A stretch of 64,000 nt of DNA, taken from the NCBI GenBank assembly GCA_024402135.1, contig JAKSJN010000003.1, positions 1 to 64,000 of the forward strand. The letters run 5' to 3'. The DNA is from Bacteroidales bacterium. Its GTDB lineage: Bacteria; Bacteroidota; Bacteroidia; Bacteroidales; UBA932. Under the pieces are notes generated by a model. That model did not search any database and had not been told where the DNA came from. It saw nothing but the letters and a program-made list of their open reading frames with translations. This document shows, piece by piece, positions 149 to 9,880 of this stretch (its first letter is position 1; every line of letters begins with the position of its first letter). The position numbers were made by a program, and so were the translations under genes.

Positions 149-190
149 GATTTATGCCGCCATGAGCTTACGCAGGGAACGCTGGTTGAT

Positions 191-213
191 CCTTCGACTT
201 CGCTCAGGACAGG
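191..213. repeat. Short dispersed repeat CCTTCGAC-n6-CTCAGG, copy 1 (inside rmlA)
   Basis: The copy has invariant arms CCTTCGAC and CTCAGG around a variable 4-6 nt centre. On the rmlA coding strand it encodes CPERSRR and interrupts the conserved EIT/NQ junction. Related copies lie at 299-323, 353-377 and 2694-2714, with a degraded one at about 950-970. Multicopy repeats of this look are common in Bacteroidota and other environmental genomes; that statement is general knowledge and was not tested here. Confidence 0.8.
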
Positions 214-275
214 CTCTGGTGATCTCGTATTCGCCTCGGGCAGATGGCTGGATGTGGGCTGCTACATCGACCACC

Positions 276-377
276 TTGTTCGGGTAGAAGTAGAGTCTCC
301 TTCGACCTTGCTCAGGATAAACTTTCACTTTGTTCGGGTAGAAGTAGAGTCTCCTTCGACTGAACTCAGGATAAACT
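276..377. repeat. Tandem 54-bp duplication carrying dispersed-repeat copies 2 and 3 (inside rmlA)
   Basis: Two units, 276-323 and 330-377, are identical over 31 bp (from TTGTTCGGG to CCTTCGAC), differ in a 6-bp centre (CTTGCT against TGAACT), and are identical again over CAGGATAAACT. The offset is 54 bp, or 18 codons, so the rmlA frame is kept and LYFYPNKV is encoded twice. The differing centres suggest two separate repeat insertions, or a duplication followed by change in the centre. Confidence 0.85.
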
Positions 378-1064
378 CTGGCATAGTTGCTCTTGGGATG
401 TGCGGGCTTCTCTTCGATGCTGAGGCAGTTGCCTTCACGGTCGAACTCCGCCACTCCATAGCGCTCAGGGTCGCTCACCCAATATCCAAACACAGTTGCC
501 TTCTTCTCTTCGTCTGCAGTACGAACCGCCTCCTTCAGCCTCTTAGTAAATCCAGCACCTTGGAAGATGTTGTCACCAAGAACCAGACAAGCCGAATCAT
601 CGCCAATGAAGTCCTTACCGATGGTGAAAGCCTGTGCAAGACCATCAGGTGAAGGCTGTTCTGCATAAGTGAACTCTACACCATAGTCACTACCATCTCC
701 CAAAAGGCGCTTGAAACCAGGGAGATCGTAAGGAGTACTGATGATGAGAATCTCACGGATTCCAGCAAGCATTAATACTGAGATGGGATAATACACCATC
801 GGTTTGTCATAGATGGGCATCAATTGTTTACTAATGCCTTTCGTTATCGGGTAAAGTCTGGTACCCGATCCACCAGCGAGGACGATTCCTTTCATATGAT
901 TATTTGTTGATTTATTTGCTTAGTATCGCGTAATGGTATCGAACCGTTTCCTTTGACTCCACTCAGAAGCCAGAATCAACCTGTGCACGCGGTAAACCAT
1001 TAGGCATGGTATTCTAGTGTCACTAAACCAATCTATACCTCTTTATCTTTTATTGTCGGCATTC

Positions 1065-2525
1065 TTATAGCATCTGTTTTTTTAAGAATGCGACCAACTT
1101 ATCTAAAGAGCTATCATTATTATCGAACAAATACTTAACTATAAAATCTGTAATAGCTTTTCTATCTTCTCGAAGATTCTGGAGTTCCGATTCTATCATT
1201 CCATAAAACCTCTTTCCGTCCTTATCTTCGCTTGTATCAGTTCTTTTATAATCCGCTACTATATCATCCAAACTCTTGCCATGGAAAACATAGTCATTCA
1301 GTTCACGGAATAGTTTCTGGTCAACACATTCAAAGAGTCTCTGCTTGAGATACTTTTCCAGACTCTCAATAGGCAGATAATTCAAAGGAATATTGTTCTT
1401 AATACCCCTCTTGTTCATATAATTCTGGCTTCTCTCTTTTACATCACCATCAAGAATAATCGAAACAGAAGCTTTTCTTCCTAACAAATTGAATCTCACA
1501 ACATCGTTTGCCAGATCAATAACATTTGTATAGCCACCACATGGAAGGACATGGACAAGCTTACTATTCATAAGGTGATTGTCACGTAGAACCTTATCAA
1601 CAATTGCCTTTGCCAAATCGTCTTCAACCAGAATTACTTTATCGTAACCACTGTGATCATACAATATACGCGTTGCATAAGCAGGGTAACAAGGATTGAT
1701 TACTTCTATTGCATTGTCGGCATGACGTTCTACATAAAAAATGTTGCTTGGTTTAATATTCCCAACCAATTCAATCGAATGGGTAGAGAAATAGATAGCA
1801 TAATTGTATTCAACAGCCATATCCTCCAAAAACTGAAGAAGTCTCTTTAATGATGAAGGATGCAGAGCAAGTTCTATTTCATCAAGAAACAATAGACATG
1901 GTTTTGTTAAACTCGCACGATCATTATTCCTAATATATAGAGAATTAAGAATGCTGACTAGCAAGTTTTCGCCTGTGGACATATGAAATTGGCTAATTCT
2001 TTTCCCATTCTTTTCATAGAAGAAAATGTTGCCTTTGAATTTGTCATAATGGTTTGAAACCATCCAGAGTTTCTCATAATATGTCTCATCACCCTGTAGT
2101 ATTAATCCAAGATTCTTGCGGATGAATTCACTTGCTTCTATTAGTCTTTCCTGCTTAATCGATTCTAGGGCATTTATGTTATCATACGTCATGTCTTTGA
2201 ATCTATTGCCGTAAATAAGACTTCCTTCAAAGAAACCCTTAATATTCATAATTGGTCCTTCCGAGCTCTTCATCCATGCACCATTTACCTGCTTCCATGC
2301 TCTAGAAGAATCGCCTAGTTTGAACTCTATATAAGCATCATCATCTGTCTTCCCAAAGTACTGTTTCATAGGAAGGTTAAAAAAGACGCTTGATGCACAC
2401 GCAGTTATGGTACTCTTTCCAGAACCGTTTTGCCCTGTAATTGCATACAAGCCCTTCTCAATAGGTAAAGAAATGCTAAAATCATCAATACACTTGATGT
2501 GGTGAATTGTAACCTCAAGATTCAT
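1065..2525 (-). CDS. OLD-like ATP-dependent nuclease (AAA ATPase plus TOPRIM)
   Basis: A 486-residue protein with an ABC/SMC-type ATPase half and a TOPRIM half. Visible motifs are Walker A GQNGSGKST (about 31-39), a signature-like HMSTGENLLVS, Walker B CLLFLDEIELALHP (about 210), an H-motif FSTHS, then TOPRIM elements VILVEDD (about 305) and IILDGD (about 360). OLD-family proteins couple ATP binding to DNA or RNA cleavage, and many act in phage defence alone or with partner genes. No partner such as a UvrD helicase or reverse transcriptase lies beside it. The gene is clearly more AT-rich than its flanks and sits between two broken sugar-nucleotide genes, which suggests acquisition. The exact OLD class is not resolved; a PARIS-like fused ATPase/TOPRIM is an alternative. 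Confidence 0.8.
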   Translation of the reverse strand: MNLEVTIHHIKCIDDFSISLPIEKGLYAITGQNGSGKSTITACASSVFFNLPMKQYFGKTDDDAYIEFKLGDSSRAWKQVNGAWMKSSEGPIMNIKGFFEGSLIYGNRFKDMTYDNINALESIKQERLIEASEFIRKNLGLILQGDETYYEKLWMVSNHYDKFKGNIFFYEKNGKRISQFHMSTGENLLVSILNSLYIRNNDRASLTKPCLLFLDEIELALHPSSLKRLLQFLEDMAVEYNYAIYFSTHSIELVGNIKPSNIFYVERHADNAIEVINPCYPAYATRILYDHSGYDKVILVEDDLAKAIVDKVLRDNHLMNSKLVHVLPCGGYTNVIDLANDVVRFNLLGRKASVSIILDGDVKERSQNYMNKRGIKNNIPLNYLPIESLEKYLKQRLFECVDQKLFRELNDYVFHGKSLDDIVADYKRTDTSEDKDGKRFYGMIESELQNLREDRKAITDFIVKYLFDNNDSSLDKLVAFLKKQML

Positions 2526-2813: not shown

Positions 2814-3137
2814 TTATGCTGCCACTCCATTTGAGTTTATCCAGGAATTGGACTTCATGGTCAGACGATACACTCCAATCACGCACTCCTTCTCCTTGCT
2901 CGAATCCCAATGGGCATTGTCTGAATAGTAGCCAGCCTTGCGAAGTACGGCATCGGCATAGTTGGCGAGCAGCTGCTTGGTGTCCTTCGGCAGGCAGTAG
3001 CCTCCATAACCGAATGATGGATTGTTGTAGTGGGTGCCGATACGTGGATCAAGACCAACGCCCGAGATGATTGCCTGGGTGTCGAGTCCCTTTACCTCTG
3101 CGTATGTATCGAGCTCCGGTTTCTCGGCATAGGTGAA
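2814..3137 (-). pseudogene. ugd: Chimeric remnant: rmlA scrap fused to UDP-glucose 6-dehydrogenase fragment
   Basis: Read on the minus strand, one open frame gives a short rmlA-like piece (VEFTYAEKP) joined to a Ugd segment. The Ugd segment includes [31 protein letters not shown] and [16 protein letters not shown], which carries the catalytic cysteine loop. It then jumps by an internal deletion of roughly 20 residues to [17 protein letters not shown] and [13 protein letters not shown], and ends after about ten unrelated codons at 2814-2816. Ugd oxidises UDP-glucose to UDP-glucuronate, the substrate of the epimerase at 4424-5488. Only about a quarter of the enzyme remains, so this is a dead fragment. 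The rest of the 5' part is replaced by the small-RNA cluster. Confidence 0.8.
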
Positions 3138-3145
3138 CTCGACTC

Positions 3146-3175
3146 TTGCTTTTCCCGTTCTTATTCGTACCTTTG
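3146..3175 (+). promoter_or_regulatory. Promoter of small RNA 1
   Basis: TTG (3146-3148), 19 nt, TACCTTTG (3168-3175). This fits the Bacteroidota -33/-7 consensus exactly. Confidence 0.75.
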
Positions 3176-3181
3176 CGATAG

Positions 3182-3269
3182 GTTATACAATGAAGTCTGG
3201 GGTATTCGCTAAGCAAGACAGGCTTCCATCATCATAGGACGTTTTATCATTTGATAGGACGTCCTTTTT
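3182..3269 (+). ncRNA. Small structured RNA 1 of the AGCAAG cluster
   Basis: This unit of about 88 nt lies between a consensus promoter and a terminator (GGACGT 3237-3242 pairing with ACGTCC 3259-3264, then five T). It contains an outer stem GAAGTCT/AGGCTTC, an apical ATTC (3204-3207) and the conserved AGCAAG (3212-3217). No ORF of useful length starts within it. It is nearly a sequence duplicate of RNA 2. Function is unknown. The 5' end is predicted from promoter spacing only. Confidence 0.65.
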
Positions 3270-3282
3270 GTGTCCTCAACTC

Positions 3283-3312
3283 TTGCGGATCCGGTTCTTA
3301 TTAGTACTTTTG
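3283..3312 (+). promoter_or_regulatory. Promoter of small RNA 2
   Basis: TTG (3283-3285), 19 nt, TACTTTTG (3305-3312). The spacer is nearly the same as in promoter 3. Confidence 0.75.
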
Positions 3313-3318
3313 CAATGA

Positions 3319-3409
3319 GATTTATTAGGAAAGTCTGGGGCATTCGCTAAGCAAGACAGGCTTCCATCATCATAGGACGTTTTATCTTCACTGATAGGGC
3401 GTCCTTTTT
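3319..3409 (+). ncRNA. Small structured RNA 2 of the AGCAAG cluster
   Basis: Same plan as RNA 1. An outer stem GGAAAGTCT/AGGCTTCC carries one bulge, ATTC lies at 3342-3345 and AGCAAG at 3350-3355. The terminator hairpin pairs GGACG with CGTCC and is followed by TTTTT (ending about 3409). The core from AAGTCTGGGG to the terminator is almost identical to RNA 1, while the 5' leader differs. Confidence 0.65.
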
Positions 3410-3422
3410 GTATCCTCGACTC

Positions 3423-3452
3423 TTGCAGATCCGGTTCTTATTCGTAACTTTG
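3423..3452 (+). promoter_or_regulatory. Promoter of small RNA 3
   Basis: TTG (3423-3425), 19 nt, TAACTTTG (3445-3452). This is a perfect consensus match. Confidence 0.75.
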
Positions 3453-3458
3453 CATTAG

Positions 3459-3548
3459 CTATTAGGTAAGAAGTCATAGGCAATCGCCTTAGCAAGGTGA
3501 CTTCCAAATATTTAGGACGTTTATCAGTGATGATGGGCGTCCTTTTTG
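3459..3548 (+). ncRNA. Small structured RNA 3 of the AGCAAG cluster
   Basis: The outer stem GAAGTCA (3470-3476) pairs perfectly with TGACTTC (3498-3504). The inner hairpin is AGGC-AATC-GCCT (3478-3489) and is followed directly by TAGCAAG (3490-3496). The terminator pairs GGACG with CGTCC before TTTTT. Stem bases differ from RNAs 1, 2 and 5 while pairing is kept, so this copy is diverged rather than a recent duplicate. Its 5' segment (3458-3469) is complementary to the leader of the micro-ORF at 3630. Confidence 0.65.
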
Positions 3549-3552
3549 TGTC

Positions 3553-3563
3553 CTAACGGATGG
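3553..3563. repeat. CTAACGGATGG boundary repeat, copy 1
   Basis: The 11 bp recur at 4276-4286. In each case they are followed at a distance by the 48-bp repeat listed separately (231 bp away here, 37 bp away at the second copy). Here they are also partly inverted at 3786-3797 (CCATCCGTCTTA), so the micro-ORF segment is bracketed by imperfect inverted repeats. Confidence 0.55.
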
Positions 3564-3629
3564 GCTACTCTTTCCATGAGCCCCAATGACCGAACGTCTA
3601 GACTTACCAATTACCTAATAGCAAAGAAA

Positions 3630-3770
3630 ATGGAAGTCACTATTGCATTTTGCGGTCTCAAGCTGAAAGTCAGCTATGAGCCAGTTCGTAAACCTGTTCT
3701 CGTCAGGGGCCACTTCCGTGTGGTCAACGGCAAGAAGGTTTACGTGAAGCCTCACTTCCGCAGGAAGTAG
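3630..3770 (+). CDS. 46-residue basic micro-protein, unknown function
   Basis: I do not recognise a characterised family. The protein is short and cationic and ends with VRGHFRVVNGKKVYVKPHFRR. Arg/Lys/His-rich tails of this type (GHF/GHY, VNGK, VxPHxR) recur in small Bacteroidota proteins often found near mobile or accessory DNA; that is from memory. The start at 3630 is preferred over an upstream ATG at 3546, because the extra 28 residues overlap the terminator of RNA 3 and are not protein-like. The gene lies between small-RNA units, and its leader TTACCTAATAGC is the exact reverse complement of the 5' part of RNA 3. No good promoter is seen directly upstream. The gene may be a toxin or a regulator, or the frame may be spurious. 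Confidence 0.5.
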   Translation: MEVTIAFCGLKLKVSYEPVRKPVLVRGHFRVVNGKKVYVKPHFRRK

Positions 3771-3794
3771 GGCTTGATCTGCTCGCCATCCGTC

Positions 3795-3842
3795 TTAGTC
3801 AAGGGGAGGTTCCTGCTTCGGCAGGGGCCTCCCTGCGAGTAT
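3795..3842. repeat. 48-bp hairpin repeat, copy 1
   Basis: TTAGTCAAGGGGAGG, then a TTCG-capped stem CTGC/GCAG inside a longer GGGAGG/CCTCCC stem, then CTGCGAGTAT. It is identical to 4324-4371 except for one base. A strong GC hairpin is present but no T-run, so it is not a typical intrinsic terminator. Confidence 0.7.
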
Positions 3843-3843
3843 T

Positions 3844-3873
3844 TTGTAGTTCTGCTATCATTCACTATCTTTG
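3844..3873 (+). promoter_or_regulatory. Promoter of pseudoknot RNA 4
   Basis: TTG (3844-3846), 19 nt, TATCTTTG (3866-3873). This is a perfect consensus match. Confidence 0.75.
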
Positions 3874-3879
3874 CCTAAG

Positions 3880-4008
3880 ACAAAAAGGCGCTCAAGCACG
3901 TTGAGAAAGATAGATATTTGAATCGGCAGTGAGAGATAAGCGCCTCACATAATGCCGAATCAGAGATTAGAAAGTGCACTTGCCCGGGATGGGTCGGTGC
4001 ACTTTTTT
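3880..4008 (+). ncRNA. Small RNA 4, candidate pseudoknot RNA
   Basis: This unit of about 129 nt ends in a strong terminator (AAGTGCA 3972-3978 with TGCACTT 3998-4004, then T-run). Two 6-bp stems cross: AGGCGC (3886-3891) with GCGCCT (3940-3945), and TCGGCA (3923-3928) with TGCCGA (3953-3958). An extra small hairpin CTCAA/TTGAG lies at 3891-3905. No downstream gene follows, because promoter 5 begins 5 nt after the T-run, so a cis riboswitch is unlikely. It lacks the AGCAAG motif of its neighbours. Identity is unknown. Confidence 0.6.
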
Positions 4009-4012
4009 ATTC

Positions 4013-4042
4013 TTGCTTATTCCGGTCTTAGTCGTAACTTTG
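4013..4042 (+). promoter_or_regulatory. Promoter of small RNA 5
   Basis: TTG (4013-4015), 19 nt, TAACTTTG (4035-4042). It begins only a few bases after the T-run of RNA 4. Confidence 0.75.
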
Positions 4043-4048
4043 CATCAG

Positions 4049-4146
4049 CAATTGATAGGAAGGTCATTGGAGATTCCTCCAATAGCAAGAATGACTTTCG
4101 ACACATAGGACGTTTATCAGTAATGATGAGCGTCCTTTTTGTTTTT
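4049..4146 (+). ncRNA. Small structured RNA 5 of the AGCAAG cluster
   Basis: The outer stem AGGTCATT (4061-4068) pairs with AATGACTT (4090-4097). An inner hairpin, up to ATTGGAG/CTCCAAT around the loop ATTC (4073-4076), is followed by TAGCAAG (4083-4089). The terminator pairs GGACG with CGTCC before a T-run. Both stems differ in sequence from RNA 3 but pair at the same places, which is compensatory change. Confidence 0.65.
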
Positions 4147-4153
4147 CCAACTC

Positions 4154-4182
4154 TTGCGGATCCAAAAATAATCGTATCTTTG
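4154..4182 (+). promoter_or_regulatory. Promoter of small RNA 6
   Basis: TTG (4154-4156), 18 nt, TATCTTTG (4175-4182). Confidence 0.7.
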
Positions 4183-4188
4183 CATCAG

Positions 4189-4272
4189 AAGTAAATGCAT
4201 TGCGAGAGTTAGCAAGCCTCGCACGACTTAAATAGAGTATTTTCGTGAAAACGGGGGTGCTCTATTTTTTTT
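4189..4272 (+). ncRNA. Small RNA 6, simplified member of the AGCAAG cluster
   Basis: A single stem TGCGAG (4201-4206) with CTCGCA (4218-4223) presents TAGCAAG (4210-4216) in its loop. The inner hairpin of RNAs 1, 2, 3 and 5 is missing. The terminator is different too: AATAGAG (4231-4237) pairs with CTCTATT (4260-4266), followed by eight T. It shares the promoter type and the motif but is the most diverged of the five related units. Confidence 0.55.
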
Positions 4273-4275
4273 GCT

Positions 4276-4371
4276 CTAACGGATGGTTGTCTTCTCTGAG
4301 GAAGCCGCCTGCGGGCCGCTTCGTTAGTCAAGGGGAGGTTTCTGCTTCGGCAGGGGCCTCCCTGCGAGTAT
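4276..4371. repeat. Second copy of the CTAACGGATGG / 48-bp hairpin repeat pair
   Basis: CTAACGGATGG (4276-4286) and the 48-bp hairpin repeat (4324-4371) bracket only 37 bp here, with no ORF. In the first copy (3553-3842) the same two elements bracket the micro-ORF. This arrangement fits gain or loss of the micro-ORF segment between fixed boundaries. Confidence 0.65.
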
Positions 4372-5810: not shown

Positions 5811-6359
5811 ATGAGTAAACGCGAACTTGACGAGCTGCGAGACCGAATTGAACAACTGTTTGTTGACTCAGTGGATGGCAAACTGGACAACAAAGCTATT
5901 TCAATCGGTAAGTTGACCGAATCCGGTCGTATATTTCTTTCAATACTATCAGGATTGGAGTTCAAAAATGAAATCCAGTTCTATGTGCACCCAGATGACC
6001 TGATTCATATTTACAAGGGCCATATAGGCAAGAATGAAGACGATATCTCAAATCTGATTCCTCTTACAATTGATGATATCCGCGGGATAGTGGACGTATT
6101 GTATCATCCCGATGCAATCGCCTATTTGGGCGAAGACAGTAAAGGAAAGAAGTTCGTTTTCTTCCGGGAGGGCGAGATCGGTTGTTTCAATCTTATTGAC
6201 GTTTATGCCATGAGAAGAGGCAAACTGACAGTCAAGACCTACTATCATACAAAAAAGGGCGTATCCCAAAGTGCAATGACACTCCTTGCACAGACGTCCG
6301 AAACGTATGGGGCAACCCTTTCAGTCGCAAATATACCAATTCTTTTAGAATCCAAATAA
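5811..6359 (+). CDS. Orphan protein with PBECR-like (barnase-EndoU-ColicinE5/D-RelE-like) domain
   Basis: A 182-residue cytoplasmic protein with no signal peptide. The N-terminal third is a helical, charged segment. The C-terminal part has the look of a PBECR nuclease domain: HIYKGHIGK (about residues 66-74), LTIDDIRGIVDVLYHPDAI, KFVFFREGE, and an YAMRRGKLTVKTYYH strand. In such domains the conserved His and late Ser/Thr/Tyr residues form the RNase site. These domains usually end phage MuF heads or polymorphic toxins, so a stand-alone copy is unusual. No antitoxin-like gene is adjacent. The gene is AT-richer than the core genes and runs against the strand of its polysaccharide-locus neighbours. 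Family assignment is by resemblance only. Confidence 0.5.
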   Translation: MSKRELDELRDRIEQLFVDSVDGKLDNKAISIGKLTESGRIFLSILSGLEFKNEIQFYVHPDDLIHIYKGHIGKNEDDISNLIPLTIDDIRGIVDVLYHPDAIAYLGEDSKGKKFVFFREGEIGCFNLIDVYAMRRGKLTVKTYYHTKKGVSQSAMTLLAQTSETYGATLSVANIPILLESK

Positions 6360-6407
6360 TTATGTCAAACTTCAATTCTTTTTCCGCGGTTCTGGGGCTG
6401 GCCTGTC

Positions 6408-6887
6408 TTATTCTATGTCTTCCAGATGTTCCCTGGGGATGTATGGGGTGGCGACAGCTGCTCGATCGTTGAGTTTGACAATGAGCCTGCGTTCGCCTTT
6501 GATGCGTCTGATGATGCCTTCGCATCCTTTGAAGATGCCCGAGATTACTCTTTTGCGCTTTCCTTCGAAGAAGCTCGGGTCGTCAACGGGGAGGTAGATG
6601 ACCGGCTCGTCGTGGTAAGGGGCCATAACGAAGAAGGTTTGCATGACGTTGTCCGGAATGGGCTGGGGCTCTCGGTTTTTTGCGTCACGATAAATCAGGA
6701 GTTTGTCGTATAACTCGAACTTGAGCCTGTGGATGACCGCATCTGTGCACTGGATGAAGTATAGCGTCCTCAAGTCGTTGATGCCGACATGGCGTATGCC
6801 TTCGTACTCCAGGACTTGGAGGACGTAGGACTTTTCACGTATCGTGCGTGTGGCGAACCACTTCAGTTGTGCATCCTGCTTTTGCAT
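6408..6887 (-). CDS. UpxY-family NusG-like transcription antiterminator
   Basis: UpxY proteins are NusG paralogues that bind RNA polymerase on a specific leader and let it read through long capsule operons. The 159 residues start with a NusG-like strand KWFATRTIREKSYVLQVL. The end resembles a KOW motif, with RVISGIFKGCEGIIRRIKG, KLNDRAAVATPYIP and REHLEDIE. The start at 6887 is chosen because the 41 residues before it (frame open from 7010) are Cys/Arg-rich, unlike the family, and overlap the structured leader. It is the first gene of the polysaccharide locus on this strand. Regulation probably acts through the leader at 6888-7088. Confidence 0.85.
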   Translation of the reverse strand: MQKQDAQLKWFATRTIREKSYVLQVLEYEGIRHVGINDLRTLYFIQCTDAVIHRLKFELYDKLLIYRDAKNREPQPIPDNVMQTFFVMAPYHDEPVIYLPVDDPSFFEGKRKRVISGIFKGCEGIIRRIKGERRLIVKLNDRAAVATPYIPREHLEDIE

Positions 6888-7088
6888 AATCGGTGCTGTT
6901 CTGGCGGGTCTGTTACCCGTCTGTATGGGACTAGTTCTCCCCCTCCCCGTCTTGTGCTTGCATTGCCGGCATACAGACGCGACAATGCAGAAGCGGGTCA
7001 GCTCCGGCATTCAGCTATGTCTCTGAAGTGTTCCGCCCTAGTCCCTAGTGACAAAAACACGGCCTTCGGGAATGTTACCACTCCCTGG
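6888..7088 (-). promoter_or_regulatory. Structured 5' leader of upxY with crossing stems
   Basis: Two long perfect complementarities cross each other. CGTCTGTATG (6918-6927) pairs with CATACAGACG (6970-6979), and GGGACTAG (6927-6934) pairs with CTAGTCCC (7038-7045). The 6970-6979 segment also lies in the loop of a hairpin GCATTG/CAATGC (6960-6965, 6983-6988). Segment 6918-6927 partly overlaps a local hairpin CGGGT/ACCCG (6905-6919). The leader can therefore adopt a pseudoknot or alternative local folds about 30 nt before the start codon. No convincing alternative gene is present. Confidence 0.55.
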
Positions 7089-7094
7089 ATGCCA

Positions 7095-7127
7095 CAAAGG
7101 TACTGAATCGTTTGATATATAGGGCAA
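7095..7127 (-). promoter_or_regulatory. Candidate upxY promoter
   Basis: On the minus strand TTG (7127-7125), a 22-nt spacer, then TACCTTTG (7102-7095). The spacer is longer than the 19 nt seen in the best promoters of this window, so this is a moderate match. It predicts a leader of about 200 nt. Confidence 0.45.
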
Positions 7128-9082: not shown

Positions 9083-9787
9083 TTACATTATTGCGGCATC
9101 GAGGGCGATCTTCATCATCTGGGTGAAGTTCTTCTGGCGCTCCTCAGGGGTTGTGATGGTGTCTTCGACGAAGGAGTCGGAGATGGTGAGGAGGCAGGCT
9201 GCATTCTTGCCGAGGACCTGGGCGTTGGCGAAGAGGGCGAATGATTCCATTTCGACTGCCACACAGCCTTTGGCATGGATCTCTTCGAGGTAGTCGGATG
9301 ATTCGCGGTAGAAGACGTCCGATGAGTGGATGAGGCCTTCCTTGATGTCGATCTCGAGGGCCTTGGCTGCTGCACGGAGCTTGTCGTTAAGGGCGGCCGA
9401 CGGGAGTGTAGTGTCGCCTTCGAAGCCGCTCTGGGTCTTGGCGTAGGTGCTTTCGCTGTAGGCTGCTGTCGCGAGGACTACATCATAGACGTGAACGTCC
9501 TTGACATATGAGCCGGCCGATCCGATGCGGATGATGTTCTCGACTCCGTAGTCGCGGTAGAGTTCGTATGAGTAGATGCCTATCGACGGCATGCCCATTC
9601 CGCTGGCCATTACGGTCACCGGCTGACCCTTCCATGTGCCGGTGTAGCCCTGGATGCCGCGGACGTCATTGACTAGCACGGGATTCTCGAGGAAGGTTTC
9701 AGCGATGAATCTGGCGCGGAGCGGATCACCTGGCATGAGGACGGTCTTGGCGATGTCGCCGGGTTTTGCGGAATTATGGGGTGTCAT
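9083..9787 (-). CDS. deoD: Purine-nucleoside phosphorylase, DeoD type
   Basis: DeoD cleaves purine (deoxy)nucleosides with phosphate to the free base and (deoxy)ribose-1-phosphate in purine salvage. At 234 residues it matches the hexameric bacterial form. Visible motifs are the phosphate-binding MPGDPLRARFIAETFLE near the N terminus, VMASGMGMPSIGIYSYEL, IIRIGSAGS, the ribose-site VAVEMESFALF, and the base-site TISDSF. The start follows from the conserved TPHNSAKPGDIAKTVLMPGDP opening. It is divergent from the Fur-family gene at 9881. Confidence 0.93.
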   Translation of the reverse strand: MTPHNSAKPGDIAKTVLMPGDPLRARFIAETFLENPVLVNDVRGIQGYTGTWKGQPVTVMASGMGMPSIGIYSYELYRDYGVENIIRIGSAGSYVKDVHVYDVVLATAAYSESTYAKTQSGFEGDTTLPSAALNDKLRAAAKALEIDIKEGLIHSSDVFYRESSDYLEEIHAKGCVAVEMESFALFANAQVLGKNAACLLTISDSFVEDTITTPEERQKNFTQMMKIALDAAIM

Positions 9788-9880
9788 ATCGTGTATCGGT
9801 TAAAAATTTGACATTGCTTGTTCAGCGTAAAGATAGGAATTATGCAACAAAAAACTAAATTTGTGATAATTCAACAGACA

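What the first reader, a model, noticed from the sequence alone, without database searches (positions are those of the whole stretch)
3146..4272. Tandem cluster of six tiny promoter-RNA-terminator units, five sharing an AGCAAG motif and four of these a covarying hairpin
Seen in sequence: units at 3182, 3319, 3459, 4049 and 4189 each have TTG-N18/19-TAnnTTTG, 84-98 nt of non-coding sequence and an intrinsic terminator. Units 1, 2, 3 and 5 share an outer stem, an inner hairpin with ATTC or AATC at its tip, and AGCAAG just 3' of it. The inner stem is AGGC/GCCT in unit 3 and GGAG/CTCC in unit 5, which is compensatory change; it is weaker in units 1 and 2. Inference: these are dedicated small RNAs under selection for structure, and they expanded in tandem. 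I know of no named family with this plan.
Basis: partly seen in the sequence, partly recalled or inferred. Interest (0 to 1): 0.82.

Follow-up and report, generated by a model that had tools for sequence, protein, structure and literature searches.

The report
Antisense RNA array controlling tiny protein
A row of tiny RNA genes in a Bacteroidales bacterium looks like a set of antisense switches: the RNA beside a 46-residue protein gene matches the start of that gene so as to block its translation, a toxin-antitoxin-like layout that the searches made here did not find described.

Summary
In detail: six promoter-RNA-terminator units at 3146-4272, five with AGCAAG. The interpretation changes because unit 3 is followed by a 46-aa ORF (3630-3770). 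A profile of this protein family finds 88 of 232 genomes of the genus (probably Cryptobacteroides). Most copies share one layout: sigma-ABfr promoter, short RNA, terminator, ORF, with no second promoter of that type. The RNA's 5' part is complementary to the ORF's start region: p<=0.05 in 59 of 72 modules fetched after the idea was formed, against 2 of 66 control ORFs. Sequences differ between loci while pairing is kept. AGCAAG and part of the 'covarying hairpin' are a second antisense arm. Best explanation: a compact, mobile, type-I-toxin-antitoxin-like module with a same-strand upstream antisense RNA. Complementarity is strongly supported by sequence; transcription, repression and toxicity are inferred. 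It is not FopS/GibS and fails two features of canonical type I systems.

The parts
3146..3175 (+). sigma-ABfr-type promoter of unit 1 (TTG-N19-TACCTTTG)
   Evidence: sequence
3178..3271 (+). unit 1: orphan antisense RNA; 5' arm TAGGTTATACAATG (3179-3192) is the perfect complement of the start region of the orthologous ORF in L020/L044; terminator from 3236
3283..3411 (+). unit 2: promoter 3283-3312, RNA from about 3318, terminator 3374-3411; second arm shared with unit 1; no 5'-arm target found
3423..3452 (+). sigma-ABfr-type promoter of unit 3
   Evidence: sequence
3456..3549 (+). unit 3: cognate antisense RNA; arm 1 3458-3469, arm 2 3491-3505, terminator T1 from 3514
3556..3563 (+). segment b (ACGGATGG), complementary to b'
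   Evidence: this module alone p 0.20; 40 of 93 modules at p<=0.05
3611..3646 (+). a': region before the start codon (3611-3622, pairs with arm 1) and start codon to codon 6 (3632-3646, pairs with arm 2)
3630..3770 (+). small basic ORF, 46 aa; family of more than 100 members among the fetched loci
3786..3793 (+). segment b' (CCATCCGT)
3795..3842 (+). 3' end of the module with hairpin; 98% identical copy at 4324-4371
4276..4371 (+). apparent remnant of a second module: b-like AACGGATGG and the module's 3' end without an ORF between

Best explanation
Each unit is (or was) the antisense-RNA half of a compact two-part module. One sigma-ABfr promoter makes a short RNA that ends at an intrinsic terminator. 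Its 5' part is antisense to the start region of a gene for a 43-60-aa basic protein just downstream on the same strand. That gene has no promoter of this type of its own, so its mRNA is expected to be a terminator read-through product. The read-through RNA begins with the antisense sequence and is predicted to close its own start region in cis. A processed mRNA without the leader would be more open, and would be held by the more abundant terminated RNA in trans. This is the logic of a type I toxin-antitoxin system with the layout of an AbiF/type III one. In the window only unit 3 has its cognate ORF beside it. Unit 1 and 'mid' are orphan antisense RNAs that fit ORF alleles of other genomes, probably left by duplication, ORF loss and recombination, and could act in trans. 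Shown by computation: anatomy, complementarity and its covariation, protein-level conservation, lack of a second promoter of this type. Inferred: transcription, read-through, processing, repression, toxicity, trans action.
For: Profile finds 88 of 232 genomes of the genus at >=85% completeness. 108 modules extracted, 2 weak ones dropped, 100 with full upstream sequence, 94 non-redundant. Complementarity of RNA region and start region: p<=0.05 in 78 of 94, p<=0.01 in 51 of 94; cognate score mean 25.2 against 16.6 for 8742 non-cognate pairs. Modules fetched after the idea: 59 of 72 and 39 of 72 (of these, alone 41 and 26 of 50); control ORFs of the window 2 and 0 of 66. Duplex energy, promoter chosen without knowledge of the arm: cognate -31.2, non-cognate -19.0 kcal/mol, cognate best for 50 of 86. 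In 26 modules whose RNA starts TCAT (anti-ATGA), the next four positions pair in 77% of cells against 36% (maximum 53%) in 2000 permutations. TAnnTTTG before the RNA in 86 of 94, between terminator and ORF in 2 of 94; terminator hairpin in 82 of 94. A fixed start-region stretch has unpaired probability 0.46 in read-through RNA and 0.60 without the leader, more open in 77 of 86. Median dN/dS 0.25 over 258 preselected, non-independent pairs. Unit 1 fits the L020 start region (3 of 200 shuffles reach its score), 'mid' fits L021/L023 (2 of 200).
Against: No expression data. 16 of 94 modules miss p<=0.05; three (L061, L096, L144) show no pairing at all. Units 2, 4 and 5 of this report have no better-than-chance target among 105 start regions. 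Specificity inside the array is not sharp: predicted duplexes with the window ORF are -28.5, -30.8 and -29.7 kcal/mol for units 1, 2 and 3. Arms 1 and 2 of unit 3 lie in an order that cannot form one continuous duplex with the start region, so both cannot pair in the simple way at once. The protein is basic (median pI 11.4, GRAVY -0.56; a membrane-helix-like stretch in 3 of 99), unlike usual type I toxins. Nothing shows toxicity. b/b' pairing reaches p<=0.05 in only 40 of 93.
Confidence: 0.72

Rival explanations
1. Cis-acting leader only: the 5' segment folds back on the start region of the read-through mRNA as an attenuator of an ordinary small, perhaps RNA-binding and autoregulated protein; the terminated RNA is a by-product and there is no toxin. 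(Not exclusive: cis and trans action can both hold.)
For: Cis pairing predicted at >0.5 in 39 of 83 modules (the paired stretch there was chosen from the same complementarity test); protein small and strongly basic; no toxicity evidence; full-length extra units are near only 4 of 94 modules.
Against: Orphan units with promoter and terminator but no ORF persist in the window, one of them 93% identical to a cognate unit elsewhere; patchy, mobile distribution is more like an addiction or defence module.
Confidence: 0.3
2. Type III-like (AbiF-like) system: the upstream RNA neutralises the protein by binding it, and the complementarity is secondary.
For: Same layout as AbiF-RCd22 of C. difficile: one start site, RNA of about 100 nt, terminator, read-through into the gene (PMC12373285, abstract and section 7); protein is basic and could bind RNA.
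Against: The match to the start region is kept while the RNA's sequence and fold differ between subfamilies.
Confidence: 0.12
3. Trans-acting sRNAs of a FopS/GibS-like regulatory family with distant targets such as susC mRNAs; the small ORF is only a neighbour.
For: FopS is a multicopy, sigma-ABfr-driven short sRNA family of Bacteroidaceae (PMC11697453, passages and section 8).
Against: No Rfam hit at gathering score except tRNA in the window and 18 fetched loci; the 5' arm varies with the adjacent ORF, whose start region is a far better partner than others.
Confidence: 0.08
4. Chance or repeat artefact: tandem duplications of a terminator-rich intergenic stretch without function.
For: The locus is rearranged (rmlA pieces); units 2, 4, 5 lack identified targets.
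Against: Complementarity in modules fetched afterwards, 59 of 72 against 2 of 66 controls; compensatory changes.
Confidence: 0.03

Closest known systems
Type I toxin-antitoxin systems (hok/sok, tisB/istR-1, shoB/ohsC, zor/orz, dinQ/agrB, timP/timR)
   Same: small protein whose mRNA is matched by a short antisense RNA; full-length mRNA predicted more closed than one without its 5' leader; multicopy and mobile here
   Different: the RNA lies upstream on the SAME strand and seems to share its promoter with the protein gene, whereas PMC12390103 (abstract and passages) describes own promoter and opposite strand, and reports the class only from Proteobacteria, Firmicutes and Tenericutes (itself proposing a cyanobacterial one); protein not hydrophobic; toxicity unknown
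AbiF-RCd22 and type III systems
   Same: promoter, short RNA, terminator, then the protein gene on the same strand
   Different: there the RNA binds the protein (PMC12373285, abstract); here it is antisense to the start region; protein is 43-60 aa without an Abi_2 match; no abiF-motif (RF03085) hit in the sequences scanned
FopS / GibS sRNAs of Bacteroides (bound by RbpB)
   Same: multicopy short sRNAs; FopS has sigma-ABfr promoters
   Different: shared conserved seed for distant susC mRNAs, single-stranded 5' stretch plus terminator, no pairing with a neighbouring small ORF reported in the passages I read; Rfam GibS gives 23.6 bits against a cut-off of 115
phrog_21154 (47-aa phage protein family of unknown function)
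   Same: C-terminal part: E 6e-6 for the L027-type protein, 2e-4 for the L029-type
   Different: function unknown; the window protein scores only E 0.67 (and E 0.0076 to phrog_10678, 214 aa, unknown)

Membership tests
Type I toxin-antitoxin | protein of about 60 aa or less | tested here: met
   median 47 aa, range 43-60, 99 proteins, starts chosen by rule
Type I toxin-antitoxin | RNA complementary to the toxin mRNA | tested here: met
   78 of 94 at p<=0.05; after the idea 59 of 72; controls 2 of 66
Type I toxin-antitoxin | antitoxin RNA from its own promoter on the opposite strand | tested here: not met
   same strand, upstream; TAnnTTTG between terminator and ORF in 2 of 94
Type I toxin-antitoxin | hydrophobic toxin (usual, not universal) | tested here: not met
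   GRAVY median -0.56, membrane-helix-like stretch in 3 of 99
Type I toxin-antitoxin | protein toxic when made without the RNA | not testable with these tools
   needs expression
Type III / AbiF | RNA upstream on the same strand with promoter and terminator | tested here: met
   promoter motif 86 of 94, terminator 82 of 94; read-through itself not testable here
Type III / AbiF | endoribonuclease or Abi_2 protein | tested here: not met
   four representatives: nothing above cut-off in Pfam, nothing in NCBIfam; window protein nothing in PADLOC
Type III / AbiF | RNA neutralises the protein by binding it | not testable with these tools
   needs binding assay
FopS/GibS | match to the Rfam family at its curated score | tested here: not met
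FopS/GibS | seed R1 targeting susC-like mRNAs | not tested
   seed letters are in a figure, not in the text read

The most novel reading that the evidence does not exclude
A new class of single-promoter toxin-antitoxin modules in Bacteroidota: the antisense RNA that silences the protein in trans is also the 5' leader that keeps its own read-through mRNA closed in cis. In the window the antitoxin half has multiplied into a tandem array whose orphan members keep older or foreign specificities, an RNA-based immunity to incoming alleles of the module.
Probability: 0.33. Interest if true: 0.88.

Novelty: new variant of a known kind. Interest (0 to 1): 0.75.

Why it matters
A 2025 paper reports type I toxin-antitoxin systems only from three phyla and proposes a cyanobacterial one (PMC12390103, abstract and passages). 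My searches of an open-licence library (listings) showed none in Bacteroidota. Here is a small-protein family whose four tested representatives match no Pfam or NCBIfam model above cut-off, present in 88 of 232 genomes of one genus, with antisense control legible in sequence across about 100 loci. The same-strand, one-promoter layout would be a new way to build such a system, easy to miss for searches that look for hydrophobic peptides and opposite-strand RNAs. The orphan array makes testable whether spare antisense RNAs protect against related modules.

Tried and rejected
Rfam: nothing at gathering score apart from tRNA; GibS at 23.6 bits rejected as chance. A covariance model of five copies (R1) found strong matches in 61 genomes only to its own five input copies; four weak ones in three other genomes were inspected and look like bare terminators, and a further own-genome match is the reverse strand of a terminator. 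Hairpin covariation alone: weak. Small protein: four representatives against Pfam and NCBIfam, nothing above cut-off (zf-C2H2_2 at E 0.08 for one, below its cut-off); window protein against PADLOC, nothing; PDB sequences, nothing below E 0.37. tblastn of two proteins (L027- and L085-type) against 50,697 phage records and of the window protein against 72,556 plasmid records: no match. Viral contigs: none confirmed with A4, two with A6. Order sample of 294 genomes: outside the own genus three weak matches, E 5e-4 to 1e-3, two with inner stops. hok/mok-like upstream ORF: 27 of 42 modules of one class have GGGGAGGT after b, but only 12 of 42 a small ORF ending within 12 nt of the main start, so not claimed. 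b/b' pairing: significant in fewer than half, kept as secondary.

Dropped before counts: L088 and L089 (weak, other families); 6 modules lacking full upstream sequence and 6 redundant ones (to 94); modules without TAnnTTTG in range (87, 86); also long or short cases (83); one with a short 3' end (93). All modules come from a profile seeded with 21 proteins, so the set leans to close relatives. Searches used choices informed by the pairing; repeat them without that and agree (one search's 0.37 against 0.64 becomes 0.46 against 0.60). Checking changed one count: of the 7 rows only 4 (L008, L027, L028, L055) are full-length extra units; two rows are the two complete modules of L147 seeing each other, one (L074) a lone terminator. 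I left the odds as they were.
Full report
What is there. The window lies in a 2.61-Mb genome in 34 contigs (G000). At 3146-4272 six short units follow one another on the + strand, each with a sigma-ABfr-type promoter (TTG, 18-19 nt, TAnnTTTG) and an intrinsic terminator. Units 1, 2, 3 and 4 repeat one another; 'mid' and 5 differ. AGCAAG is in all but 'mid'. Rfam has nothing at its curated scores.

The missing partner. A DNA search of the own genome with unit 3 gave a terminator-sized match on contig C12; reading there showed a whole unit directly before a small ORF. The window has a homologous ORF (3630-3770, 46 aa, 50% identical) directly after unit 3. A single-sequence search of the genus found it in 22 of 250 genomes. 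A profile of 21 members found it in 88 of 232 genomes of at least 85% completeness, with two or more matches in 32 of the 88 by my count of the rows. In a sample of 294 genomes of the order only three weak matches lay outside the genus. Named records with the protein are Bacteroidales MAGs, some titled as from horse faeces, cattle colon or buffalo omasum; names differ (Rikenellaceae, Bacteroides sp.), one is Candidatus Cryptobacteroides aphodequi, so the genus is probably Cryptobacteroides (inference).

The pairing. Reading 14 loci I saw that the 5' part of the RNA before the ORF is complementary to the ORF's start region in several of them, although both differ from locus to locus. A first test on 24 loci put 21 at no more than 3 of 200 shuffles. 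I then fetched further loci (stretches) and ran one fixed test on all: best local complementarity between the region 420 to 150 nt before the conserved core and the region 140 to 10 nt before it, against 200 dinucleotide shuffles. Of 94 non-redundant modules 78 reach p<=0.05 and 51 p<=0.01; cognate pairs score 25.2 on average, non-cognate ones 16.6; the cognate start region is strictly the best of 94 for 47 and within the top three for 65. By source at p<=0.05: first loci 19 of 22; loci fetched after the idea 59 of 72 (7 of 7, 11 of 15, 41 of 50). Sixty-six mechanical ORFs of at least 150 aa from the window gave 2 at p<=0.05 and 0 at p<=0.01. Duplex energies agree: -31.2 cognate, -19.0 kcal/mol non-cognate, cognate best for 50 of 86 with the RNA start chosen without knowledge of the arm (one search gave the same picture). 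In 26 modules the RNA begins TCAT, the complement of ATGA at the ORF start; at the next four positions 77% of cells are Watson-Crick pairs against 36% when start regions are permuted (maximum of 2000: 53%), with several pair types per position. This is covariation between the RNA and the neighbouring gene.

The window itself. Arm 1 of unit 3 (3458-3469) is the complement of 3611-3622, just before the start codon; arm 2 (3491-3505, with AGCAAG) pairs with 3632-3646, codons 1-6. In the fixed test this module reaches p 0.015. The two arms lie in an order that does not allow one continuous duplex, so which pairs first, or whether they alternate, is open. In the read-through RNA the arm-1 target is predicted unpaired with probability 0.18, in an RNA starting after the terminator 0.75. 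Over 86 modules, for a fixed stretch, 0.46 and 0.60, more open without the leader in 77.

Orphans and history. L044/L020 (a horse-faeces MAG) carries the orthologous module in the same neighbourhood (rmlA fragment on one side; stretches matching window 6404-7112 and 9083-9789 on the other), with an 89% identical ORF but one RNA unit. That unit is 93% identical to window unit 1, and its 5' arm matches its own ORF perfectly. So the window ORF is matched by unit 3, while unit 1 keeps the other 5' arm. Against shuffles over 105 start regions, unit 1 (3 of 200) and 'mid' (2 of 200; L021/L023-type) have a credible partner; unit 3 scores 18 of 200 in this diluted test; units 2, 4 and 5 have none (192, 68 and 78 of 200). 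Duplex energies blur this: with the window ORF units 1, 2 and 3 give -28.5, -30.8 and -29.7 kcal/mol; with the L020 ORF units 1 and 2 give -34.6 and -36.9 (they share arm 2); 'mid' gives -32.8 with the own genome's C12 ORF. A 48-nt copy of the module's 3' end after unit 5 suggests a module that lost its ORF. Full-length extra units lie near 4 of 94 modules (L008, L027, L028, L055).

Other anatomy. TAnnTTTG occurs before the RNA in 86 of 94, between terminator and ORF in 2 of 94, in a background stretch in 9 of 94; a terminator hairpin follows the RNA in 82 of 94. So the ORF seems to depend on read-through, unless another promoter type is used. A segment after the terminator (b) is complementary to one after the ORF (b') in 40 of 93 at p<=0.05 and 21 at p<=0.01, with variants such as CCGAGGGGA/TCCCCTCGG and CTGAGGGGA/TCCCCTCAG; a/a' and b/b' cross, so both cannot form a nested fold in one molecule. 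The ORF is under protein-level selection (median dN/dS 0.25 over 258 pairs, preselected for 60-97% identity and not independent). Proteins are 43-60 aa, median pI 11.4 and net charge +11, not hydrophobic. Two near-identical IMG/VR contigs carry a complete module; L150 shares with L036, a genome of the genus, only about 470 bp at 95.5% identity. tRNA genes lie upstream of 12 of 106 modules where about 1.9 would be expected from 39 tRNAs in the own genome. Both suggest mobility.

Mechanism. Most likely the short RNA is an antisense repressor of the ORF's translation, in trans on mRNA that has lost its leader and in cis on full-length read-through RNA. Small size, patchy multicopy occurrence and mobility make a toxin-antitoxin role the best guess for the protein (about even odds; inference). 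AbiF-RCd22 shows by experiment that one start site, a terminator and read-through can serve such a pair (PMC12373285, abstract and section 7), though there the RNA binds the protein. PMC11228461 (outline with abstract and opening) describes two-step control of type I toxin mRNAs.

Comparison. Not FopS/GibS (PMC11697453: passages, outline, section 8): no Rfam match, and the 5' arm follows the neighbouring ORF. Type I by mechanism, but it fails the opposite-strand/own-promoter feature and the usual hydrophobic toxin (PMC12390103, passages; PMC4147584, passages). I do not file it as a type I system; it works like one if the inference holds. Searches of an open-licence library for anything like it in Bacteroidota (listings) showed nothing.

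Noticed in passing
window 1065-2525 (-): AAA ATPase with a TOPRIM-like C-terminus; best PADLOC model ATPase-Toprim_I-B (E 5.6e-38), a possible defence gene beside the array.
   Followed up: partly
window 152-895 (-) and 3123-3145: rmlA-like gene with repeated segments near its end; 23 nt just before unit 1 match the rmlA fragment of L044 exactly, so the locus is rearranged.
   Followed up: partly
window 5811-6359 (+): PBECR3-domain protein (phage-associated nuclease-like; E 7.6e-11) near the array.
   Followed up: no
L037, L080, L086, L096, L100, L102, L106, L118, L120, L131, L137, L148: A tRNA gene lies upstream of the module in 12 of 106 modules, about six times the number expected.
   Followed up: partly
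modules of the CCGAGGGG class, e.g. L086, L134, L148: GGGGAGGT, a strong Shine-Dalgarno-like word, follows segment b in 27 of 42, odd for Bacteroidota (recalled); b' would cover part of it.
   Followed up: partly
L150, L151 (IMG/VR contigs): Nearly identical contigs with a phage-type DNA methyltransferase gene (tested in L150) carry a complete module.
   Followed up: partly
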